IMG/VR virus record: IMGVR_UViG_3300036766_002276
Location: 1-42,504 of that record
Reading direction: 5' to 3' (one strand)
Origin: a virus
DNA length: 42,504 bases
The notes under the pieces were generated by a model. It had not been told where the DNA came from. It made no database searches and worked only from the letters and a program-made list of their open reading frames with translations. The stretch's first letter is position 1, and each line of letters opens with the position of its first letter. This document shows, piece by piece, positions 17,293 to 39,709 of the stretch. The translations under genes and the position numbers were made by a program.

Positions 17293-20200
17293 TCAGGCTG
17301 TCGGATATGGAGGTGTTGGTGGAGTGAAATCGGTCGTGTATCGCCCAATCCCTTTGGTAAGTCGTAATTCGTCATAAACTGCGATCTGCGACACGGTGTT
17401 CGTTCCAAGAAGTATCCACTGCCCGCTTGAGCTTCCTATAGTTGAGGTGTCGTATACCGGGGTGCCGCTTAATACGCCATCGAAGTACCAAGAAATAGTT
17501 CCACTTACCCTGACAACTGCAATGTGATGATAATTGCCGTCTCTCCTTCCGGTCATCGCGCCAGAAGCAACAACAGAACCAAGGGCCCATCGATAAACGT
17601 CGGTGCTATAGCCAACTTGGATATCGTAAGTCGATGCCCCAACCGCCCTTCCAAAATAGGCTGATCCTGTTCCTGCAGACCTCTCAAACCACTCTAAGGT
17701 GAAATCTCCTGTTCCAAGGACGAATGCTACACTCGCAGGAAGTGTGATATATCCGCCGGTAGTCGTCACATCTGCTGCCGCTGTTCCGGCTTTCGGATTC
17801 GTGGTGGTTAACGCAATCCCGGCGCCGCTCGCAGTTATCGAGTGGTTGTTTGAACTAGAATCCGTGAATGTGGTTGACCCGTTTGTGCCATTCATCTGAA
17901 GGTACAGAGACACATTGGACCAATATGGATCAGTAACGGCCGGAGTGACGCTGTTCGACGCAGACGACTCCGAGCTGTCGCCGTTGGCGTTGGTCGCGTG
18001 AACGGTGAAGGTGTAGTTGGTGCCGTTCGTCAGCCCGGACACCGTGATCGGGCTGGACGATCCCGTTCCGGTAATGCTGCCCGGATTGGACGTTGCCGTG
18101 TAACCCGTGATCGATTCCCCGCCGTCGCTGGTCGGGGCGGTGAAGGCGACGCTGGCGCTCGCGTTTCCTGCTACTGCCGTGCCGATGGTGGGCGCGGCGG
18201 GGACGGTCGAGTTGATCAGTTCCAGAGCGGTCGCTGTCGCGCTGTCGGTGATGCCGCGCGAGGTGAACGTATTATTCGGCACCCGCAACGCCTGCAACAC
18301 TTCGAAGATTTGTGTCCCTGTTGGTACCCAGGCGGCGATTCCACTGTACCCGCCAATCGCGACGTCATAAGAGCTGCCTCTGCCGCTTAGCAGAAGACCG
18401 AAAGTGGAATTGCCTGCCAGCCGCCCCTCGCCCGAGGCGGGAGTGCCAATGGTCGATGCGGGCACACTGATGGGGCCGTAGGCGATGATCGCGGGCTGCC
18501 CCGTGCCCGGATTGATATATAGTGCGGGATTGCTCGCATTGCCGTATATCTGCACTGCGTTGCCGGTTCCGCTGCCGCTGGTGAGCGCGTCGAATACGCC
18601 CGCCGCGCCGCTGCCGAAGGCTTTGGACCAGATGCCGTATCCGGTGCCGGTCACCTCGGCATAGACCGCGTGCCGGTTGGTGGTCGCCGGTATCGCCTGC
18701 AACGTGGCATAGCCGCCGCCGAGCGCCGAGCCGCCGGTTGCGTGGATGTAGCCGGTAGTGTCGATGTCGCCGGCAAACGTCCCGCTCGCCGCGCTCAGAC
18801 TTCCCGCGAAGGTCGCGGCTCCGGTAGTCGCATCGAGCGTGAACGTCGCCACGCCAGACGCTGCGCCGAGTATCCCGCCCTTGTGAATCACCACGCCAGA
18901 GCCGCCGGTGATCGCTCCAGTGGAGGTGTTCCAGGTGATCGTCCCCGCCCGCAGCGACCCGGAATAATCCGTGCTCGCCAGCGTGAAATCCTTGAGGATG
19001 GTTTTCCCGGCGGCGTCGAGATTCGACGACAACTGCGAACTCGTCACCGTCCCGGCCACGCTCCCCAGGTCAACCGTCCCGCCGCCGCCCCCGACCAGCG
19101 CCCCCGCAGCCGTCAGGGTGACGTTCGCGTTCAAGACCGGATCGTCCGGGTCGTTGGCGAAATTCGTCGGGTAGCTCGCTGCTTGGGTGGCATTAGCCGA
19201 GGCGTTGCCCGAGGTGTCGACCGCCTTGATGTGAAAATACCAGTTCCCCGCGCTGATGACGGTGTTGCGCGACTCGACCGACGTGCCGACGTACAGACTA
19301 CCAGCCCCAAGAATCTGCGCGGCCCATGCAAGATCGGTGGCGCTCGCGCGGATTTCGTACCCTGCGAGGTCGGCATCCGCCACCGCGTCCCAGGTGTAGC
19401 GGCGCGTGCCATCCGCGAGCTGCACGGCGACGAAGTTGGTCACGTCCGACGGCGGCGCCAGCTTGCCGATCGGGTAGTAAATGATTTTCTGGGTCCCTGT
19501 CCAGGGCTGGATCTGGCCGAGGTAATTTTCGCAGGCGAGGTAGATCGTGTACTCCGCGCCGTCGGTCACCGGGCCGAGCAGCAGCGAGTCGTCCTGCGTC
19601 GTGACGAAATGCCAGGGCGTGCCGCTCTGCGCCCAGGCGATGTGCGTCTTGCGCGTCTTCGAACGGTCGGAGAACCACCAGTGCAGTTCGATGAAGGTGT
19701 TGATGCCTCCATCGGCGCCGAGCACCAGGTGGTCGCTCGGGTTGGCCGGTTCGGGGCTGCCTGGTTTCGGGTTGGTGAGCAGGATGGTGCCGAAGCCGGC
19801 CGAGGTGGAGATGTTCGGCGTGGCAAGCGCCGGAATGCCGGCTTCGAAGCCGTAGATGCTCTCGTTGTATTCGATCAGCGACAGCCTGGCGCGCTGATCC
19901 TGGGCGCGGCGAATGGCGGTGACGACGAACGGCTTCATCACCTGCCCCACCAGGCCGATGGCCCAGGGATCATATTGCGCCACGGCGGAGGGCAGCGCGG
20001 AGGCCCAGGCGACCGCGCTCACGGTGCCCGCGGCGGTGGTGATGGTGCGCGTGGCGATGGTGTCGTCGGCGAGCCGCACCATGATCTGGTACGTGGCCGC
20101 CGGCGCCAGCGTGACCGGGTGGTCGAGCGCGACCGAGGTGGTGCTGCCCGAGACGGCGCGGCCTCCCTCGCCCCACTGCGGCACGTCGTTCTGGACCGGC

Positions 20201-22347
20201 ACCAGCTCCCCCACCGTCGCGGCCAGCGAATCGATGTCGACCGAGATCTCGGCCATGCGCAGCAGGTGTTGGTTTTTCAACAGGCGCCAGGTGGCCTCGC
20301 GCCACGCCTGCGAGGCACGGGTGACTCCACGCAAGGAGACGGCGGCGACGCCCGCGCCCGCGAATGCGGCCACGGCGGTGTTGTTGATGCTCACCTGGTC
20401 GCGCTGATAACCGGCGGCCGCGTTGACGTAATCGACCTCGATGGTCGAGGCGCGGTCCGAAAGCGGCAGGAAGGCTCCGGCGTACTGCGAGCTGTTGGCC
20501 GAGGTCAGGAACTGCGCCGGCGTCGAGCGCGCGCAGTCCCAGACGACGGCGACGGTAGTGCCCCGCCTGACGAGCGTGGCGCGGGCGGTGGCGCACACCT
20601 CTAGCGCCGCCGCCCACATGTCGGTCGAGGTATCGTACACGCCGTCCCAGAGGCAGCGTTTTTCCGTGCCGCCGCTGCCGTCGGCCACCATGGTGTCGCA
20701 GAACTGCGCCCAGCCGTAAAAAGAGACCAGGTCGATACCCGAAGGATCCATGCCGTCGTAGCGGTTGACCGTGAGGTCGTCGTTCAGCACCGGCTGCGTC
20801 AGGATGTCCCAGGTGACCCAGGCCTGATTTCTACTCCAGTCGCTCGACCAGGCCGACCCGTTCCACACGCGCACGATCGCGGCCTCGGCCAGGCAGGAGA
20901 AACGCATGCTGCCCGAGAGCTGGTCGGTCGCGAGCGCGCGGATGCCGACCAGCACCGTGCGCGGATAGGTGAAGTCGTCGAGGATGACCTCGTTGAGCTC
21001 CGAGAAATATAGGTCGTCGCCGTAGGTCGAGCCGCTCTGGTCGATCGAATAATTGGTGACGCGCACCTTGCACGCCGTTCCCGGCGTGATGCCGTCGATG
21101 CGGAACGTGCGGCGGATCGGCTGCGGCGTCGAGGCGGTGAGTGTCGCCGTATCGTTGACCACGGTGACGATGTCCTGCGTCTGCGCGACCCACTTCCATT
21201 TCTGCGGAGAAGCAGGTCCCGCCTCGCCCTCATAGTGCGCGCCGCGGACGGTGCTGCCCGAGATCGCCGTGTTCTCGAAATAATGCCAGCTCTTGTCCGA
21301 CCCCTCCTGCCACAGATAGCCGCAGCTCCAGTAGCCGATGCCGGAGCTGGTGACGGTATTGGGCGAATGGGTGATCGCGGTCCAGTGCGCGCCGGCGTCG
21401 ATCGAATATTCGATCTTGTAGATCACCGAGACGGCTTCCATGCCCCCGCTGGTATTGGCGTGCCACAGCCCCTGCGGGCAGGCGAGCACCACCTCCAGCG
21501 CGCCGCAGCTGCTGCCGACCGTGTCGCGCGTGACCGGCGAATCCTTCACCACTTTTGCCGCGATGGAATGGCCCGCGCGCGTGTCCTCGAATCCGGCGAT
21601 GACCGGCTGACTCAGGTAACCCCGCCGCTCCTCGATGACCACGCTCTTGTAGTCGGCGTAAGGCTGGTCGTTGATCTGGAAGTCGGTCAACTGCTTGTAT
21701 GGCCCCATGCCGAGGTCGATCAAGAGATGCGCGGTCTGGTCCTTGCCGGTCTCGTCGGTCTGGTCGATATAGCCGGCGATGATGTTGCCGTAGAGCTTGA
21801 CCAGGCCGTAGGCGCGCGCGATCGGCGCGCCCGGCTGCTGCACCGTCGCCGGATTCCACGCATACGCCGGGCTGTTGTCGTAGCTCTGCAGCGAGCCCTG
21901 GGACGGCAGGTTGGGCTTGCTCGGGGCGGTCAGCGCGCCGATCAGCATCGAGCCGACGATGCCGATGCCGGCCTGGAGCATCATCAGGCCGACGCTGCCG
22001 GCGGTCAAGCCGAGGCCCAGGCCGGCCGAGACCTCGACCGCGAGCCAGGGCGCCGCCACCATCACCGCGATCGCCAGGATCGCGCCGAGCGGGCTGGAGC
22101 CGCCACCGGCGACGTGCGGCAGGACCAGCAGCTCCTCGCCCGGGGCGAGCGTGCGCCCCGCCCAGTGCGGCGGCGCGATGCCGAGCCCGTTGATCGAGAC
22201 ATCGATGTCTATGCCGGCCGGGATGTATTCGCCCACCAGCGATTCGACCGTGCGCCCAGGGTCTGGCAGCACGATCACGTCGCGCTCGCGCCGGTCGAAC
22301 GGGTTTTTTACGACGACGAGCCGGTTAGCGGACATGACGTCAGGCAT
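17293..22347 (-). CDS. Tail tip attachment protein, lambda J-like, with FN3 and LamG domains
   Basis: This 1684-residue protein is the central tail tip/host specificity protein. The N-terminal ~190 residues, with a Gly-rich hydrophobic segment near 85-140, and the large central domains match the lambda J type. FN3-like repeats are visible near residues ~985-1070 and in the APTIGTAVAGNASASVAF region. The last ~200 residues form a LamG/concanavalin-like domain (LEWFERSAGTG, HHIAVVRVSG, WYFDGVL), probably carbohydrate binding. The 3' 700 bp are AT-richer than the rest, consistent with a swapped receptor-binding end. It overlaps the NlpC/P60 gene by 8 nt. MPDVMSANRL is taken as the start; Met5 is possible. 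Confidence 0.92.
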   Translation of the reverse strand: MPDVMSANRLVVVKNPFDRRERDVIVLPDPGRTVESLVGEYIPAGIDIDVSINGLGIAPPHWAGRTLAPGEELLVLPHVAGGGSSPLGAILAIAVMVAAPWLAVEVSAGLGLGLTAGSVGLMMLQAGIGIVGSMLIGALTAPSKPNLPSQGSLQSYDNSPAYAWNPATVQQPGAPIARAYGLVKLYGNIIAGYIDQTDETGKDQTAHLLIDLGMGPYKQLTDFQINDQPYADYKSVVIEERRGYLSQPVIAGFEDTRAGHSIAAKVVKDSPVTRDTVGSSCGALEVVLACPQGLWHANTSGGMEAVSVIYKIEYSIDAGAHWTAITHSPNTVTSSGIGYWSCGYLWQEGSDKSWHYFENTAISGSTVRGAHYEGEAGPASPQKWKWVAQTQDIVTVVNDTATLTASTPQPIRRTFRIDGITPGTACKVRVTNYSIDQSGSTYGDDLYFSELNEVILDDFTYPRTVLVGIRALATDQLSGSMRFSCLAEAAIVRVWNGSAWSSDWSRNQAWVTWDILTQPVLNDDLTVNRYDGMDPSGIDLVSFYGWAQFCDTMVADGSGGTEKRCLWDGVYDTSTDMWAAALEVCATARATLVRRGTTVAVVWDCARSTPAQFLTSANSSQYAGAFLPLSDRASTIEVDYVNAAAGYQRDQVSINNTAVAAFAGAGVAAVSLRGVTRASQAWREATWRLLKNQHLLRMAEISVDIDSLAATVGELVPVQNDVPQWGEGGRAVSGSTTSVALDHPVTLAPAATYQIMVRLADDTIATRTITTAAGTVSAVAWASALPSAVAQYDPWAIGLVGQVMKPFVVTAIRRAQDQRARLSLIEYNESIYGFEAGIPALATPNISTSAGFGTILLTNPKPGSPEPANPSDHLVLGADGGINTFIELHWWFSDRSKTRKTHIAWAQSGTPWHFVTTQDDSLLLGPVTDGAEYTIYLACENYLGQIQPWTGTQKIIYYPIGKLAPPSDVTNFVAVQLADGTRRYTWDAVADADLAGYEIRASATDLAWAAQILGAGSLYVGTSVESRNTVISAGNWYFHIKAVDTSGNASANATQAASYPTNFANDPDDPVLNANVTLTAAGALVGGGGGTVDLGSVAGTVTSSQLSSNLDAAGKTILKDFTLASTDYSGSLRAGTITWNTSTGAITGGSGVVIHKGGILGAASGVATFTLDATTGAATFAGSLSAASGTFAGDIDTTGYIHATGGSALGGGYATLQAIPATTNRHAVYAEVTGTGYGIWSKAFGSGAAGVFDALTSGSGTGNAVQIYGNASNPALYINPGTGQPAIIAYGPISVPASTIGTPASGEGRLAGNSTFGLLLSGRGSSYDVAIGGYSGIAAWVPTGTQIFEVLQALRVPNNTFTSRGITDSATATALELINSTVPAAPTIGTAVAGNASASVAFTAPTSDGGESITGYTATSNPGSITGTGSSSPITVSGLTNGTNYTFTVHATNANGDSSESSASNSVTPAVTDPYWSNVSLYLQMNGTNGSTTFTDSSSNNHSITASGAGIALTTTNPKAGTAAADVTTTGGYITLPASVAFVLGTGDFTLEWFERSAGTGSAYFGRAVGASTYDIQVGYSTDVYRWALGSVVASGAMTGRRDGNYHHIAVVRVSGTISWYFDGVLSGTPVYDTSTIGSSSGQWILLGTNTVSQIAVYDELRLTKGIGRYTTDFTPPTPPYPTA

Positions 22348-31720: not shown

Positions 31721-34288
31721 TTATGACGCGCGATCGACCCGTGCGCTCGCGCCGTAGAGCAGTATGCTGGTGTACGCCGCCTTCAACTGCGTCGGCGTAT
31801 GCAGCACCACCCACTGGTCGCCGTAGGCCTCTTTTTTGCCGGTGAACCGGCCGTTCGAGTCGCGCTGGTCCTGCAACTGCCCCATGGTCCACGACTTCAT
31901 CATGCGATAGCGCGTCACCGCGCGCTCGCCGATGACCACGCGCTGATCGCCCATGTTCAAGCCCGGCGCCGACGTCTTGAAGTTCGGCACGCTCTTGATC
32001 TGCCCGAGGTTGCCGTCGGCCGACAGGTCGGTGCCGGGGCGGCTGAAGTTGGCGGAGAACTGCTTCGCCTGCTCCACCGCCGTCCTGGCCGTCCCGCTCA
32101 TCAATCCGAAGTTGGCCATGTGATAACGGCTGTCCTCGATCACCGCCTTGCGCAGGCCGTAGCGGTAGAGGAAATCGTTCCAGTGCACGTCGAGCTCGTC
32201 GGCGCCGGGATCGGTGTCGAAGGCGTACACGTTGGTGGTGTAGCTGTAACTGGTGGCCTCCACCGCGTGCTGGTTGGTCGGTGCTTCCGCCACGCCCGCC
32301 TCATCGACGAAATGCACCTCGCCCAGGTTGTAGTCCATCGTCCAGTACAGCCCGTTCTGCTGCGTGCCGGTGCCATCGTACTCGGTGCGCGCGGCGTTGT
32401 TCGTCTTGATGACGATCGGGTACAGCGTCGAGCCCACCTGGTTGCCCTGCAGGTCGTAGATTTTCTTCGGCCGCACCACCGGGAAATGATCCAGCGCGAA
32501 GATGGTCTTCGTGCCGTCGGCCGTGGCCACCGCCTCGGTCGCCACCGCGGTGACCGCGTACTGGTCGGAGGCGTTCAGCACCTCGTTGAAAATGAGCTGC
32601 TCGGTGTCCTCGCCGATGACCCGGCTCGCGTTGCGCACGTTCTCCACCACGGCGTCCCACTGGATCTGCCCGTTGCTGGTGAGATAGCGCAATTCATCGC
32701 TCACCTCGAACGCGATTTTCTGCGGGATCGGGTACGCGGTCTCGGAGGTCTGTTTCATGCCGGCGCGAGGGATCGAGCCGCCCTCATAGACGCGCGTGTT
32801 GTTCTTCCCCGCCGCCGTTGTGTCGCGATAGCTGTACGGGATCAGCGCGGAGGCCGAGAACGGATAGGTCCCGGTATCGACGAACTGCAGGCCGATCAGG
32901 TTGTAGAGCGCCTCGCGGATCACGGTACGTTCGAAAATCGCCGGCACCGCCACATCGCTCACCAGGCCGTCGCCGGCGGCGAGCATCTTGTGCTCGGCGT
33001 GCAATTGCGCGCCGTGCATGCCGTCGTAGATGGCCAGCACCTTCTCGGCGAAGGCCTTGTTCAGCTCCTGCAACTTGCCGCCGGTGCGGCTGAACCGCTC
33101 CGTATCGCGCACGTCGGCCAGCACGCGGCTGTCGATCTTCTCCTGCAGCGCCTTCACCTTGTTGGAGTCGTCCACGCTGATGTGCGTGGTGCCGCGGATC
33201 TCGAAGCCCATCGACGCGAGCTTCTCCGCGGAGGCGATGCGGTTGCCCGAGGCGATCTGCGCCTCGGCGAGTTTCTTCACCTGCTCGTCCGACAGGTTCT
33301 CGCCTACCAGGTCGATCACCGCGTCGCCGAGCTGCGTCTTCATTTCCTCGGAGAGGCCCGCGGCCGCGGCGATGACGGCGCGGAACAACTTGACCTTCGC
33401 GCCGCGCGTCTCGGCCAGCTTCTTCGCGTCGGCTTCGATGGCGGTGCGGTTATCTTCCATCAGCTTCTTCACCTGGGCCTCGCTCAGGCCGGCCGCGGTG
33501 CTCGGCATTTCGATCTTGAGGATCATTTCCTTGTCGCCGATCTGCTCGGCGAGCTTGATGCCGGTGGCTTCGAACGAGGCGATGAGCGCCTCCCCCACGG
33601 CCTTGTCGGTGATGGTGGCGAGCGCTTTCTCGGCGGTGGCGACGAGCTGGTCGGTGACCATCTGCGACAGTTTTTTCAGCTTCAGCTTTTCGGCGAGCTG
33701 CTTGAGTAGTTCTTTCCACATGATGTGTATCTCCTGCAAAAGGGTTGATTCGAGTTCGGTTTGGGCGATGAGGGGAATGTCCCCGGGGTTCGCCTCGCTG
33801 AGTTGCACCGGATCCAGGTGCTTGATCACCGGCCGCAGCGTGAGGCCTGCGCCGCACAGCAAGGGGCCGTGCTTGGTGAGCGTCTCCTGGTCCTGCCAGT
33901 CTTCCCAATAATCGGCCGAGAGGTATTTGAAGCCTCTGGTCTTGATCGCGTCGACGCCGTGGGGTGTCCACTCCACCTGCGCCCGCAGCTTGCTGCCTTC
34001 CACAGCCAGCTTGACGATCGTGCCCGCCGCGCCCTCATCCCCGTCGTGAGCGATGTCGACAAAGATGTCCTGCCCGTAGGTGCGCTTGTCGAAGTTATCC
34101 ACCATCGCGGCGAGCATCTGCCGCGTGATTTCGAACTCGCCGTAGCGCGGATCGCGGAACGTACCGGTGCGGGTGACGGTCACCCACGAAGTCGGCTTGG
34201 CCCCGTCCAGGGTCAGCCGCGGTAGTTCGGACAGAAAGCGGATCGCCCCGTCCGGGGCGATCGCTTCCAGTTGGATGCGCCGGTTCAT
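31721..34288 (-). CDS. Fused head maturation protease, scaffold and major capsid protein
   Basis: This single 855-residue frame contains three head-morphogenesis functions. Residues ~1-175 resemble Mu gpI-type phage proteases (YGEFEITRQMLAAMVDNF, FVDIAHDGDEGAAG, GFKYLSADYWEDW). Residues ~190-400 are highly charged and helical, like scaffold/delta domains. Residues ~440-855 form an HK97-fold-type major capsid region (AVPAIFERTVIREALYNLIG to the C-terminus). An internal ATG at 33721 (MWKELLKQ) has a strong AGGAG site, so a 666-residue scaffold-capsid protein is probably the main product, with the full fusion made in minority. No stop separates the parts. Start 34288 has a weak SD. Confidence 0.87.
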   Translation of the reverse strand: MNRRIQLEAIAPDGAIRFLSELPRLTLDGAKPTSWVTVTRTGTFRDPRYGEFEITRQMLAAMVDNFDKRTYGQDIFVDIAHDGDEGAAGTIVKLAVEGSKLRAQVEWTPHGVDAIKTRGFKYLSADYWEDWQDQETLTKHGPLLCGAGLTLRPVIKHLDPVQLSEANPGDIPLIAQTELESTLLQEIHIMWKELLKQLAEKLKLKKLSQMVTDQLVATAEKALATITDKAVGEALIASFEATGIKLAEQIGDKEMILKIEMPSTAAGLSEAQVKKLMEDNRTAIEADAKKLAETRGAKVKLFRAVIAAAAGLSEEMKTQLGDAVIDLVGENLSDEQVKKLAEAQIASGNRIASAEKLASMGFEIRGTTHISVDDSNKVKALQEKIDSRVLADVRDTERFSRTGGKLQELNKAFAEKVLAIYDGMHGAQLHAEHKMLAAGDGLVSDVAVPAIFERTVIREALYNLIGLQFVDTGTYPFSASALIPYSYRDTTAAGKNNTRVYEGGSIPRAGMKQTSETAYPIPQKIAFEVSDELRYLTSNGQIQWDAVVENVRNASRVIGEDTEQLIFNEVLNASDQYAVTAVATEAVATADGTKTIFALDHFPVVRPKKIYDLQGNQVGSTLYPIVIKTNNAARTEYDGTGTQQNGLYWTMDYNLGEVHFVDEAGVAEAPTNQHAVEATSYSYTTNVYAFDTDPGADELDVHWNDFLYRYGLRKAVIEDSRYHMANFGLMSGTARTAVEQAKQFSANFSRPGTDLSADGNLGQIKSVPNFKTSAPGLNMGDQRVVIGERAVTRYRMMKSWTMGQLQDQRDSNGRFTGKKEAYGDQWVVLHTPTQLKAAYTSILLYGASARVDRAS
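33731..33735 (-). promoter_or_regulatory. Internal ribosome binding site within the capsid fusion gene
   Basis: AGGAG lies 9 nt upstream of an in-frame ATG at 33721-33719. It is much stronger than the SD of the full-length start at 34288. It would start the scaffold-capsid form inside the protease-capsid frame, similar in principle to lambda Nu3 nested in C. Confidence 0.75.
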
Positions 34289-34290
34289 GC

Positions 34291-34866
34291 TCAGGTGAAT
34301 TTGCCGGTGGCAATCACGCTCACGCTCGCGCCGGTGGTGACTTTCCACGCGCCGGCCGCGCTCGCCATTTTGATAGGCACGTACATCGCGTCGAGCACGG
34401 CAACCGAGGTCGCCCCGCCTGCGAAAATGGGGATCGAGCTTCCGGCGCCGTCCTTGATCGATACCGCGCCGGGCGAGGTGTTCGCCGGAGTGATCAGGAG
34501 GCCTTCCAGATAATCGCCTGTCGCGCCCGTGGCGCCCATCGCCTGGTCGGTCTGGCTCGCCGCGACGGTTTCGTAGTCGCCGTCGAGCCGGACTTTCATC
34601 GCCGGCTGATCGGTGGCCATGGTCACCGCCAGCGCCGCGGCTTTCGCGGCAGGGCCGACCAGGTCCGTGGCCAGGGTAACCGAGAGCGAGGCGGCCTTCG
34701 CCTGCGCCCCGAGCTGATCGCTCGCGATATTGACCGGGAGCGATGCCGCTTTGGCAGCCACCCCGAGTTGATCGCTGGCGATGACCACCGGCAGCGAAGA
34801 GGCTTTGACCGCCGATCCCGCGGTGAGCGAAGACCAAACGGAGCCAATGAGTACGTGCAGTTTCAT
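34291..34866 (-). CDS. Virion structural protein with four 18-residue tandem repeats
   Basis: This 191-residue protein begins MKLHVLIGSVWSSLTAGS. Residues 18-89 form four consecutive 18-residue repeats with consensus near AxAKAASLPVxIASDQLG. The C-terminal half holds GDYLEGLLITPANTSPGAV and a beta-rich end. Segments of the type SLPVVIASDQ occur in many phage virion proteins. Position just upstream of the capsid gene suggests a head decoration or head fibre protein. Its SD (GGAG) lies in a long hairpin at 34874-34909. The in-frame ATG at 34890 is disfavoured. Confidence 0.75.
   Translation of the reverse strand: MKLHVLIGSVWSSLTAGSAVKASSLPVVIASDQLGVAAKAASLPVNIASDQLGAQAKAASLSVTLATDLVGPAAKAAALAVTMATDQPAMKVRLDGDYETVAASQTDQAMGATGATGDYLEGLLITPANTSPGAVSIKDGAGSSIPIFAGGATSVAVLDAMYVPIKMASAAGAWKVTTGASVSVIATGKFT
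34600..34815 (-). repeat. Four tandem 54-bp coding repeats
   Basis: The four 18-codon units of the head protein gene are clearly related at the DNA level, each containing a form of GCCGCTTTGGCAGCC / GCGGCCTTCGCCTGC followed by the SLPV-type codons. The copies have diverged, so the array is not very recent. Confidence 0.7.
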
Positions 34867-35070: not shown

Positions 35071-35589
35071 TCAGAACCCCATTCCAAGCGAGAGATTGGG
35101 CCCGCGCAACGAGTGATATCCAACGCCCAGGATGAATCCGCCTGAGAATTTGTATTGGATGCCAGCTTCCCCGGTCAGGTTGAATTTCGATTTGTCGCTT
35201 TGAGTATAGAGCCAGCCGGTGACGTTTGACTGCGCGATGTCCTTTCTTTCTCCGCTGTAGCCGCCCACGCCAATGAAGGGCCGCAGCGATTCGCCCGCTG
35301 GGAAGAAATAGAGGACGTCCAGACCAAAGGTGTTCTTGGTCCGTTTCACCCCCAGGTTGGTGAAACTGCTGTGTGGTACCGGATAGTCCAGCAGTGACGA
35401 ATCGTTGAAGTCGCTGTTCCCTATAAACCCGAACTGCACTCCAAAATTAGACGCTCCCTTGAATCCGAGCGCGGCGCTGGTGCCACCGCCCTCCGATTTT
35501 GGTGCGGCCCCCACCGACAGCCAGCCGTCAGTTGCCAATGCGCTTGCAGAAAATATAAATGTCACCAACACTAAAGCGAGTCGTTTCAT
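35071..35589 (-). CDS. Outer-membrane beta-barrel protein (lysogenic conversion cargo)
   Basis: This 172-residue protein has a Sec signal peptide (MKRLALVLVTFIFSASALA), alternating amphipathic strands and a C-terminal Phe (LSLGMGF), all typical of small OmpA/OmpW-like barrels. It is not a virion protein by type. It is a cargo gene with an AGGGGAG site, its own terminator downstream and a gene-poor upstream region. It may alter the lysogen surface, for example by masking a receptor. The IS element lies ~100 bp upstream and may supply a promoter. Confidence 0.85.
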   Translation of the reverse strand: MKRLALVLVTFIFSASALATDGWLSVGAAPKSEGGGTSAALGFKGASNFGVQFGFIGNSDFNDSSLLDYPVPHSSFTNLGVKRTKNTFGLDVLYFFPAGESLRPFIGVGGYSGERKDIAQSNVTGWLYTQSDKSKFNLTGEAGIQYKFSGGFILGVGYHSLRGPNLSLGMGF

Positions 35590-35683
35590 GGTTCTCCCCT
35601 TGCGCCGATAGAACGGCGAGTTGCTGTGATTTGCTGTGTCGGCACCATGGTACCCCTCGGAGCAGCGCAGGTACAGGGGGCCT

Positions 35684-35691
35684 TTTTCTTG
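35684..35691. repeat. Target site duplication, left copy
   Basis: TTTTCTTG directly flanks the left end of the IS element and recurs exactly at 37201-37208. An 8-bp duplication is characteristic of IS1595-family transposition. Confidence 0.92.
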
Positions 35692-35753
35692 GGGAATTAT
35701 ATACTTCACTTGCGCATTGATTCATAAGAGTTTTTATATAGCGCACAATATAC

Positions 35754-38311: not shown

Positions 38312-39709
38312 CTAACCGTTCCCGATCGACGTGCCGCTCTCGCCCTTGCGCGCGTTGCCCGGCGTGATGCTCACCTTCTGTACCTTTTTCTTCGGCGCCG
38401 CGGCCTGGCCCGCCGGATCGGCGCCCTCCTCCACCGCCGGGTACGGGTCCCAGTTCTTCGCCTCCCACTCCTGGCGCTGGCGTACGTACGCCGGGTCGTA
38501 GCCCAGCTCTTCGAACACCATTCCTTTCGGCAGGCCCAGCGCGGTGAGTTTGAGTCCGCGATCGGCCGCCTGACTCGGCGTCTCGGTGCGGCGCTCGGAG
38601 AACACGATGGCGAAGTCCTCATCGTCCGGGTTGATGCCGCGCAGCAGCAGCTCGAGGCGGAAGCCCTGCTCGTAGGCGAATGCCAGGGTGTCCTGGAGGC
38701 CGTCGATCTCGTCGTAGTAGTCGCGCTTCAAATCCTCGAGGATGTCGCGCGCGAGCTTGTCGGTGTAGCCCATCATGCCCTTGGGCAGCGGCGAGCCGGA
38801 GAAGAAGGAATCGAGCAGGTACACAACGTCGTCGATCTGGTCCAGGTTGGAGTCGCCCTGCACGGGCGTCACGCCGCCTTTTTTGTTGAGGTAGTAGTCG
38901 GTGGTGATCTCGTGCTGATCCTTCTCCACACTGGTGCGGTAGGCCTCCAGTTGCTCAGGCGTTCCCCCTTCCAGCACGTGCGCGAGCCGCAGCGGCGCGC
39001 GCACGCGCCGGCGGATGACCAGGTCCTCCTCGGTCATTATCAGTTTCTGCCAGGTGGTGCGCGAGCTGTCCAGGAACGGCCGGCCGAGAGCGCCCATGTC
39101 GTCGAACGAGTCCGGATCGAACCGGCAGAGGAACAATTGCCACAGCGGGAACACCGCGCGCTCGCGTCCGGTCTGGATGTCGAACTGCGAATAGGCCTTG
39201 CGCACGTCCTTGAACTGGCCATTGCCGTCGACGTTCGGCAGGATGGTCTCGGAGGCCATGCGCACGCCGGCGACCACATGGAAGTCCTTGTCGAGCACCC
39301 ACTGGATCGGCAGGTTGCCCTCCATCACCAGGCCGCGCGCGTCGCTCTTCAGCTTCTCCGGCCGGTTGAGCTGAAGGCGGCGGCCGAAGTCTTTCCACAT
39401 CGCCGCGAGTTCCTTGTTCTCCGTCGCCTGCTGCATGATGAGCCCGCCCTTCACGACGTCGCGGGCGACGCGGTTGTGGATGCGCTTCACCCTGCCGTCG
39501 AGCCGGTCCATCTCGCGTATATCGAGGATCGCCTGGCGCAGGTCCGGATCGACCCACATCACGCGGTAGAGATACTTCATCTCGTTTTCCGGCGTGGTGC
39601 GCGCGCCGCGTTCCGATGCGCCGGCAGCCGGCTCGTTCGGCAGCCAGGCCCTGGGCAGGAAAGCCCGGGCCTTGGCGATGAAACTGAACGTCTGTTGCAG
39701 CAGGTTCAT
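38312..39709 (-). CDS. Portal protein
   Basis: This 465-residue protein occupies the portal position between large terminase and gp7-like gene. Portal features are the helical core and stem-like segment (SPLPKGMMGYTDKLARDILEDL), an acidic region QIDDVVYLLDSF, and a C-terminus with basic and Pro-rich residues. The ATG at 39709 overlaps the preceding stop (TAATG). It would form the dodecameric ring through which DNA is packaged. Confidence 0.87.
   Translation of the reverse strand: MNLLQQTFSFIAKARAFLPRAWLPNEPAAGASERGARTTPENEMKYLYRVMWVDPDLRQAILDIREMDRLDGRVKRIHNRVARDVVKGGLIMQQATENKELAAMWKDFGRRLQLNRPEKLKSDARGLVMEGNLPIQWVLDKDFHVVAGVRMASETILPNVDGNGQFKDVRKAYSQFDIQTGRERAVFPLWQLFLCRFDPDSFDDMGALGRPFLDSSRTTWQKLIMTEEDLVIRRRVRAPLRLAHVLEGGTPEQLEAYRTSVEKDQHEITTDYYLNKKGGVTPVQGDSNLDQIDDVVYLLDSFFSGSPLPKGMMGYTDKLARDILEDLKRDYYDEIDGLQDTLAFAYEQGFRLELLLRGINPDDEDFAIVFSERRTETPSQAADRGLKLTALGLPKGMVFEELGYDPAYVRQRQEWEAKNWDPYPAVEEGADPAGQAAAPKKKVQKVSITPGNARKGESGTSIGNG

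What the first reader, a model, noticed from the sequence alone, without database searches (positions are those of the whole stretch)
31721..34288. Protease, scaffold and major capsid protein encoded in one frame with an internal start
The sequence shows one uninterrupted 855-codon frame with a Mu gpI-like protease part, a charged helical scaffold-like part and a major capsid part. A strong AGGAG site is placed for an internal in-frame ATG at 33721. In most phages these are two or three genes (lambda C/Nu3/E, HK97 4/5). A fused architecture with a nested start implies a built-in stoichiometry: a few protease-tipped capsid subunits in cis among many scaffold-capsid chains. Self-cleavage would then be needed in the prohead. 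The domain calls are family knowledge; the stoichiometry is inference.
Basis: partly seen in the sequence, partly recalled or inferred. Interest (0 to 1): 0.75.

Follow-up and report, generated by a model that had tools for sequence, protein, structure and literature searches.

The report
Phage capsid polyprotein with conserved nested start
One phage gene encodes the protease, the scaffold and the shell protein of the virus head as a single chain, and a second start site inside the gene, kept in all 54 relatives compared, very probably makes many protease-free shell subunits for each protease-carrying one.

Summary
ATG 34288 opens an uninterrupted 855-codon frame, and an in-frame ATG at 33721 has AGGAG 9 nt upstream. 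Residues 1-189 are a Mu gpI-type maturation protease (PF10123). Residues 190 to about 438 are a helical scaffold. Residues about 411-855 model as an HK97-fold capsid protein (pLDDT 83, Foldseek probability 1.00).

The fusion is not a lost stop codon: 69 loci (54 non-redundant) carry it in one frame. The nested start is also conserved: 54/54 relatives have a start codon at that boundary, 96% with a strong Shine-Dalgarno site (12% at control codons), plus a local GC3 dip. It matches phage Mu's annotated Z start inside gene I (SD energy -7.4 in both). Best reading: a Mu-like I/Z gene fused to a capsid gene, making a 94 kDa protease-scaffold-capsid chain and, in excess, a 73 kDa scaffold-capsid chain, later trimmed to capsid.

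Protease-capsid fusions are already known (PAJU2, MD8, NCBIfam NF045540/NF045541). The Mu-type variant and its nested start appear undescribed in what I could search. Comparable nested starts occur in fusions with S77 and S78 proteases and, less clearly, ClpP-like ones. Protein ratios and cleavage are inferred, not measured.

The parts
31721..34288 (-). Capsid polyprotein gene: protease-scaffold-major capsid protein, 855 aa, 94.0 kDa
   Evidence: Open frame; conserved fused in 69 loci; mass
33722..34288 (-). Mu gpI-type head maturation protease part and linker, residues 1-189; conserved H81 and S124
   Evidence: PF10123 E=9.7e-10, PHROG 328 E=5.5e-11; H81 98% and S124 100% conserved; both align with Mu gpI
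33719..33721 (-). Nested in-frame start codon ATG, codon 190
   Evidence: 54/54 homologues have a start codon there, 51 of them ATG
33731..33735 (-). AGGAG Shine-Dalgarno site of the nested start, 9 nt spacer
   Evidence: Sequence; family-wide SD conservation
32975..33721 (-). Helical scaffold part, residues 190 to about 438
   Evidence: Helices 177-250, 270-359, 376-401 and 408-438 in the model (low to moderate confidence); position equals Mu Z
31724..33061 (-). Last scaffold helix plus HK97-fold major capsid part, residues 410-855
   Evidence: AlphaFold model pLDDT 83.4, pTM 0.81; Foldseek top 50 PDB hits nearly all tailed-phage capsid shells, probability 1.00
34291..34293 (-). TGA of the upstream frame, 2 nt before the first ATG (TGAGCATG): possible translational coupling of the long form
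   Evidence: Sequence

Best explanation
A Mu-like I/Z gene (protease with a nested scaffold start) has been joined in frame to a downstream HK97-fold capsid gene. One mRNA then yields two chains. The long one (855 aa) starts at 34288, probably by re-initiation after the upstream gene. The short one (666 aa, scaffold-capsid) starts at 33721 on a strong ribosome-binding site. Both co-assemble through the shared scaffold-capsid part, so each prohead receives a set fraction of covalently tethered protease. The protease then cuts within or after the scaffold, around residues 437-445, freeing mature capsid protein of about 46 kDa and emptying the shell for DNA. Shown: frame, domains, conservation of fusion and of nested start. 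Inferred: both products exist, their ratio, co-assembly, cleavage.
For: Open frame and domains. Fusion conserved in 69 loci, 54 non-redundant, including bacterial genomes. Nested start: 54/54 start codons, SD median -7.0 against -2.1 at other in-frame codons, 96% at or below -5 against 12% (other ATGs 7%); 91% against 2% in a scan along the gene, and GC3 falling from 0.78 to 0.46 at codons -12 to -5. Mu annotates Z as starting inside I; Mu's Z and I starts have SD energies -7.4 and -1.9, the window's nested and first starts -7.4 and -1.5. No other capsid or maturation-protease gene stood out among the window proteins scanned. Separate-gene relatives of the S78-type fusion are split exactly at the nested start.
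Against: No expression or virion data. Across relatives the first start's best candidate SD is only modestly weaker than the nested one, so the ratio is not readable from sequence. SD strength is a proxy for initiation. The scaffold assignment rests on position and weak helical prediction. Mu gpT was sequenced at its own start (annotation), so cleavage between scaffold and capsid has no precedent in Mu. The window's capsid part is not detectably related to Mu gpT by sequence.
Confidence: 0.85

Rival explanations
1. Only the full-length chain is made, and every capsid subunit enters with its own protease; the nested start is a relic of an ancestral separate gene.
For: Fusion makes the full chain possible, and some S78-type relatives lack a strong SD at the nested Met (8 of 50).
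Against: A dead relic would decay: start codon, SD and low GC3 persist in 54/54, 96% and 44/49 homologues through large protein divergence. Hundreds of proteases per shell would far exceed the about 60 (HK97) and 90 (D3) reported (PMC12749128).
Confidence: 0.06
2. Only the nested start is used for virion protein; the protease part is rarely or never translated and another enzyme matures the head.
For: The first ATG in this window has a weak SD (-1.5).
Against: The protease part is strongly conserved, with H81 and S124 nearly invariant over 54 homologues; most relatives have a usable first SD (76% at or below -5); no clear second maturation protease was found among the proteins scanned.
Confidence: 0.04
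3. The fusion is a sequencing or assembly error or a lost stop codon.
For: In S78-type capsid genes a single in-frame stop does separate or join the two parts (L127, L152, L163).
Against: 69 loci, including isolate genomes (Nitrosovibrio, Pseudacidovorax, Acidovorax) and the complete Microcystis phage yong1, carry the fused frame.
Confidence: 0.01
4. The SD-like sequence is a by-product of a conserved peptide (LQEI-x-M) rather than a translation signal.
For: Glutamate codons (GAG) give part of the motif.
Against: The SD persists over different peptides (LQEI, TEEIR, NEVRT, QEHAM, ESETM) while GC3 falls sharply just upstream; no other place in the gene shows such a signal.
Confidence: 0.04

Closest known systems
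Phage Mu genes I, Z and T (NC_000929)
   Same: PF10123 protease; scaffold Z starts inside gene I at nearly the same codon (179 against 190) with an equally strong SD
   Different: In Mu the capsid gene T is separate (its ATGA overlaps the end of I/Z); here it is fused, and the capsid part is not a recognisable gpT
ClpP-like prohead protease/MCP fusion NF045540 (phages F10, MD8; PMC8508860)
   Same: Protease, scaffold and capsid in one gene; a start with SD at the protease-scaffold junction in 16 of 17
   Different: Unrelated ClpP-like (lambda C-type) protease; capsid part of the Mu gpT/Phage_capsid_4 type; I saw no mention of a nested start in the passages read
S78 prohead protease/MCP fusion (PAJU2; related model NF045541)
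   Same: Protease fused to an HK97-type scaffold-capsid chain; nested ATG with AGGAGG at the junction in 42 of 50
   Different: HK97-type protease and capsid; still found as two genes in 10 of 80 relatives
Rctr41k 'capsid protein and protease' and Aneurinibacillus pAT1 polyprotein
   Same: One frame with protease, scaffold and capsid; distant capsid similarity to the window; a nested start with strong SD
   Different: T4 gp21-type protease (PF03420, S77)
Lambda C/Nu3 (from memory)
   Same: Scaffold from an in-frame internal start in the protease gene
   Different: Capsid protein E is a separate gene

Membership tests
Mu gpI (PF10123) protease | Pfam profile match above the curated cut-off | tested here: met
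   47 bits against 25.2
Mu gpI (PF10123) protease | Conserved His and Ser equivalent to Mu gpI YEHN and YLSA | tested here: met
   H81 98%, S124 100% over 54 homologues; aligned to Mu gpI. That they are catalytic is from family knowledge
Mu gpI (PF10123) protease | Proteolytic activity | not testable with these tools
   Needs an assay
Mu I/Z nested protease-scaffold gene | In-frame internal start with SD at the protease-scaffold junction | tested here: met
Mu I/Z nested protease-scaffold gene | Separate downstream capsid gene T | tested here: not met
   Fused in 69 loci
HK97-fold major capsid protein | HK97 fold | tested here: met
   Model pLDDT 83; Foldseek E down to 8.7e-10, probability 1.00
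HK97-fold major capsid protein | Match to a known capsid sequence family | tested here: not met
   No Pfam hit for the window; only PHROG 22848 of unknown function; no solved relative by sequence
NF045540/NF045541 prohead protease/MCP fusion | Profile match | tested here: not met
   works like them but is not a member
Mu gpT (PF10124) | Sequence relation of the capsid part | tested here: not met
   hhalign probability 0.7%

The most novel reading that the evidence does not exclude
A nested start at the protease-scaffold junction is a general rule of tailed-phage capsid polyproteins, retained or evolved several times with unrelated proteases (Mu-I, S77, S78, ClpP types), because it is what sets the protease-to-capsid ratio once the genes are fused.
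Probability: 0.6. Interest if true: 0.72.

Novelty: new variant of a known kind. Interest (0 to 1): 0.6.

Why it matters
Protease dose and timing are central to head maturation, and how a fused gene controls them is an open question. If true, a single ribosome-binding site inside the gene is the dial: changing it by synonymous mutation should change protease copies per prohead without touching the protein sequence. It also says that annotations of these genes as one protein miss the main product.

Tried and rejected
The whole 855-residue AlphaFold model on 11 sequences was poor (pLDDT 47) and its Foldseek hits meaningless, although herpesvirus proteases appear weakly among them; folding the capsid part alone on 56 sequences worked. 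Sequence search of PDB with the capsid profile gave nothing. T4 Gp23 similarity in 2 of 56 members (E=0.004) is too weak to use. Fusion as a lost stop codon was rejected by relatives. L057, apparently lacking the protease, is a chimeric contig end. Literature searches for an earlier description of a nested start in such fusions found none, but most subscription papers are not in the library.

Full report
OBSERVATION. From ATG 34288 the frame runs 855 codons to the stop at 31721. The ATG at 33721 is in frame (codon 190) with AGGAG 9 nt upstream. The first ATG has almost no SD (-1.5 kcal/mol) and follows the TGA of the upstream frame by 2 nt (TGAGCATG), as expected of translational coupling. The nested ATG scores -7.4.

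DOMAINS. Residues 49-326 match Mu-like protease PF10123 (E=3e-12) and PHROGs 328 and 976, head maturation protease. H81 and S124 are 98% and 100% conserved over 54 homologues and align with the YEHN and YLSA motifs of Mu gpI. The capsid part hits only PHROG 22848, of unknown function, and no solved structure by sequence. Its AlphaFold model on 56 homologues is good (pLDDT 83.4, pTM 0.81), and Foldseek matches are nearly all tailed-phage capsid shells (best E 8.7e-10, probability 1.00; HK97 itself E 7e-8). The middle part is helical and occupies the place of Mu Z. A low-confidence loop at residues 439-445, between the last scaffold helix and the shell domain, is where I would place the maturation cut (inference).

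CONSERVATION OF THE FUSION. Searches with the capsid part alone, so not biased to the nested start, brought 19 bacterial-genome loci and 57 viral contigs. They lie in Beta- and Gammaproteobacteria, including Nitrosovibrio, Acidovorax, Pseudacidovorax and Methylophaga. Together, 69 loci (the window included) have protease and capsid in one open frame with a complete 3' end; 54 are non-redundant. Microcystis phage yong1 has the same at 39% identity. No relative has separate genes. L066 has two in-frame TAG codons, neither at the protease-scaffold junction; L057 is a chimeric contig end.

CONSERVATION OF THE NESTED START. All 54 have a start codon at the boundary (51 ATG, 3 GTG). Anti-SD energy has median -7.0, against -2.1 at 43,655 other in-frame codons and -1.7 at 858 other ATGs; 96% are at or below -5, against 12% and 7%. 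The junction scores 91%; elsewhere the maximum is 12.5% and the mean 2%. GC3 drops from 0.78 gene-wide to 0.46 at codons -12 to -5, and is lower around the start in 44 of 49 genes (Wilcoxon P=3e-12; homologues are not independent, so P is only a guide). The encoded peptide varies while the signal stays.

COMPARISON WITH MU. Mu annotates Z as starting inside I, with T separate and overlapping by ATGA. Mu's starts score -1.9 (I), -7.4 (Z) and -4.3 (T); the window's score -1.5 and -7.4. The proteins align across the junction (LQQENKPMNETLRKLLARL against LLQEIHIMWKELLKQLAEKL). PaMx73 also has a putative internal start in this gene (PMC4378225). The family is therefore best read as an I/Z gene joined to a capsid gene, though not to a recognisable gpT.

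OTHER FUSIONS. Rctr41k and four relatives (S77 protease) have a start with SD -8.0 at the junction; pAT1 and two relatives have GTG with SD -10.0. In PAJU2 relatives (S78 protease), 42 of 50 have the nested ATG plus SD. That scan's other peak reaches 54%, and one of its search patterns covers the junction, so it is weaker evidence. In 10 of 80 PAJU2-type loci the two parts are separate genes, split exactly at this point, in L127, L152, L163 and L164 by a single in-frame stop. In F10 relatives (ClpP-like protease), 16 of 17 have it, but these are close relatives and the background is high. MD8's authors state that one gene encodes all three proteins (PMC8508860); Nocturne116's authors suggest a protease-MCP fusion like PAJU2's (PMC8306868). 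Neither passage mentions a nested start. NCBIfam has models for two such fusions, and neither matches the window.

MECHANISM AND LIMITS. Two chains from one gene share the assembly domain, so the protease enters the prohead covalently tethered at a dose set by the ratio of two initiation sites. HK97 and D3 use about 60 proteases per 415 and 90 per 540 capsid subunits (PMC12749128), so the long form should be about a tenth to a fifth of the total. This is inference. The relative strength of the two starts is clear in this window but not across the family, where the best first-start candidate has median -5.8. No protein has been observed.

Noticed in passing
L066:337-2970 (IMGVR_UViG_3300006792_000012): The capsid polyprotein frame holds two in-frame TAG codons (1192 and 2608) at positions that are A/E and Q or A in relatives: amber recoding or decay. 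Neighbouring genes carry few TAGs.
   Followed up: partly
window 35071-35709 (-): A gene with an outer-membrane beta-barrel match (PF13505, E=3e-7) sits inside the head module, upstream of the capsid gene.
   Followed up: no
window 38312-39709 (-): Portal with a weak T4 gp20-like match (PF07230, 24.0 against cut-off 22.9 bits) in a phage with lambda J-like tail fibre (17293-22347).
   Followed up: no
window 31799-33709 (+): A 636-codon antisense open frame lies over the polyprotein; probably a by-product of high GC3 in the sense gene.
   Followed up: no
L127, L152, L163, L164: PAJU2-type relatives in which one in-frame stop codon just before the nested start separates protease and capsid genes: direct view of gene fusion or fission.
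   Followed up: yes
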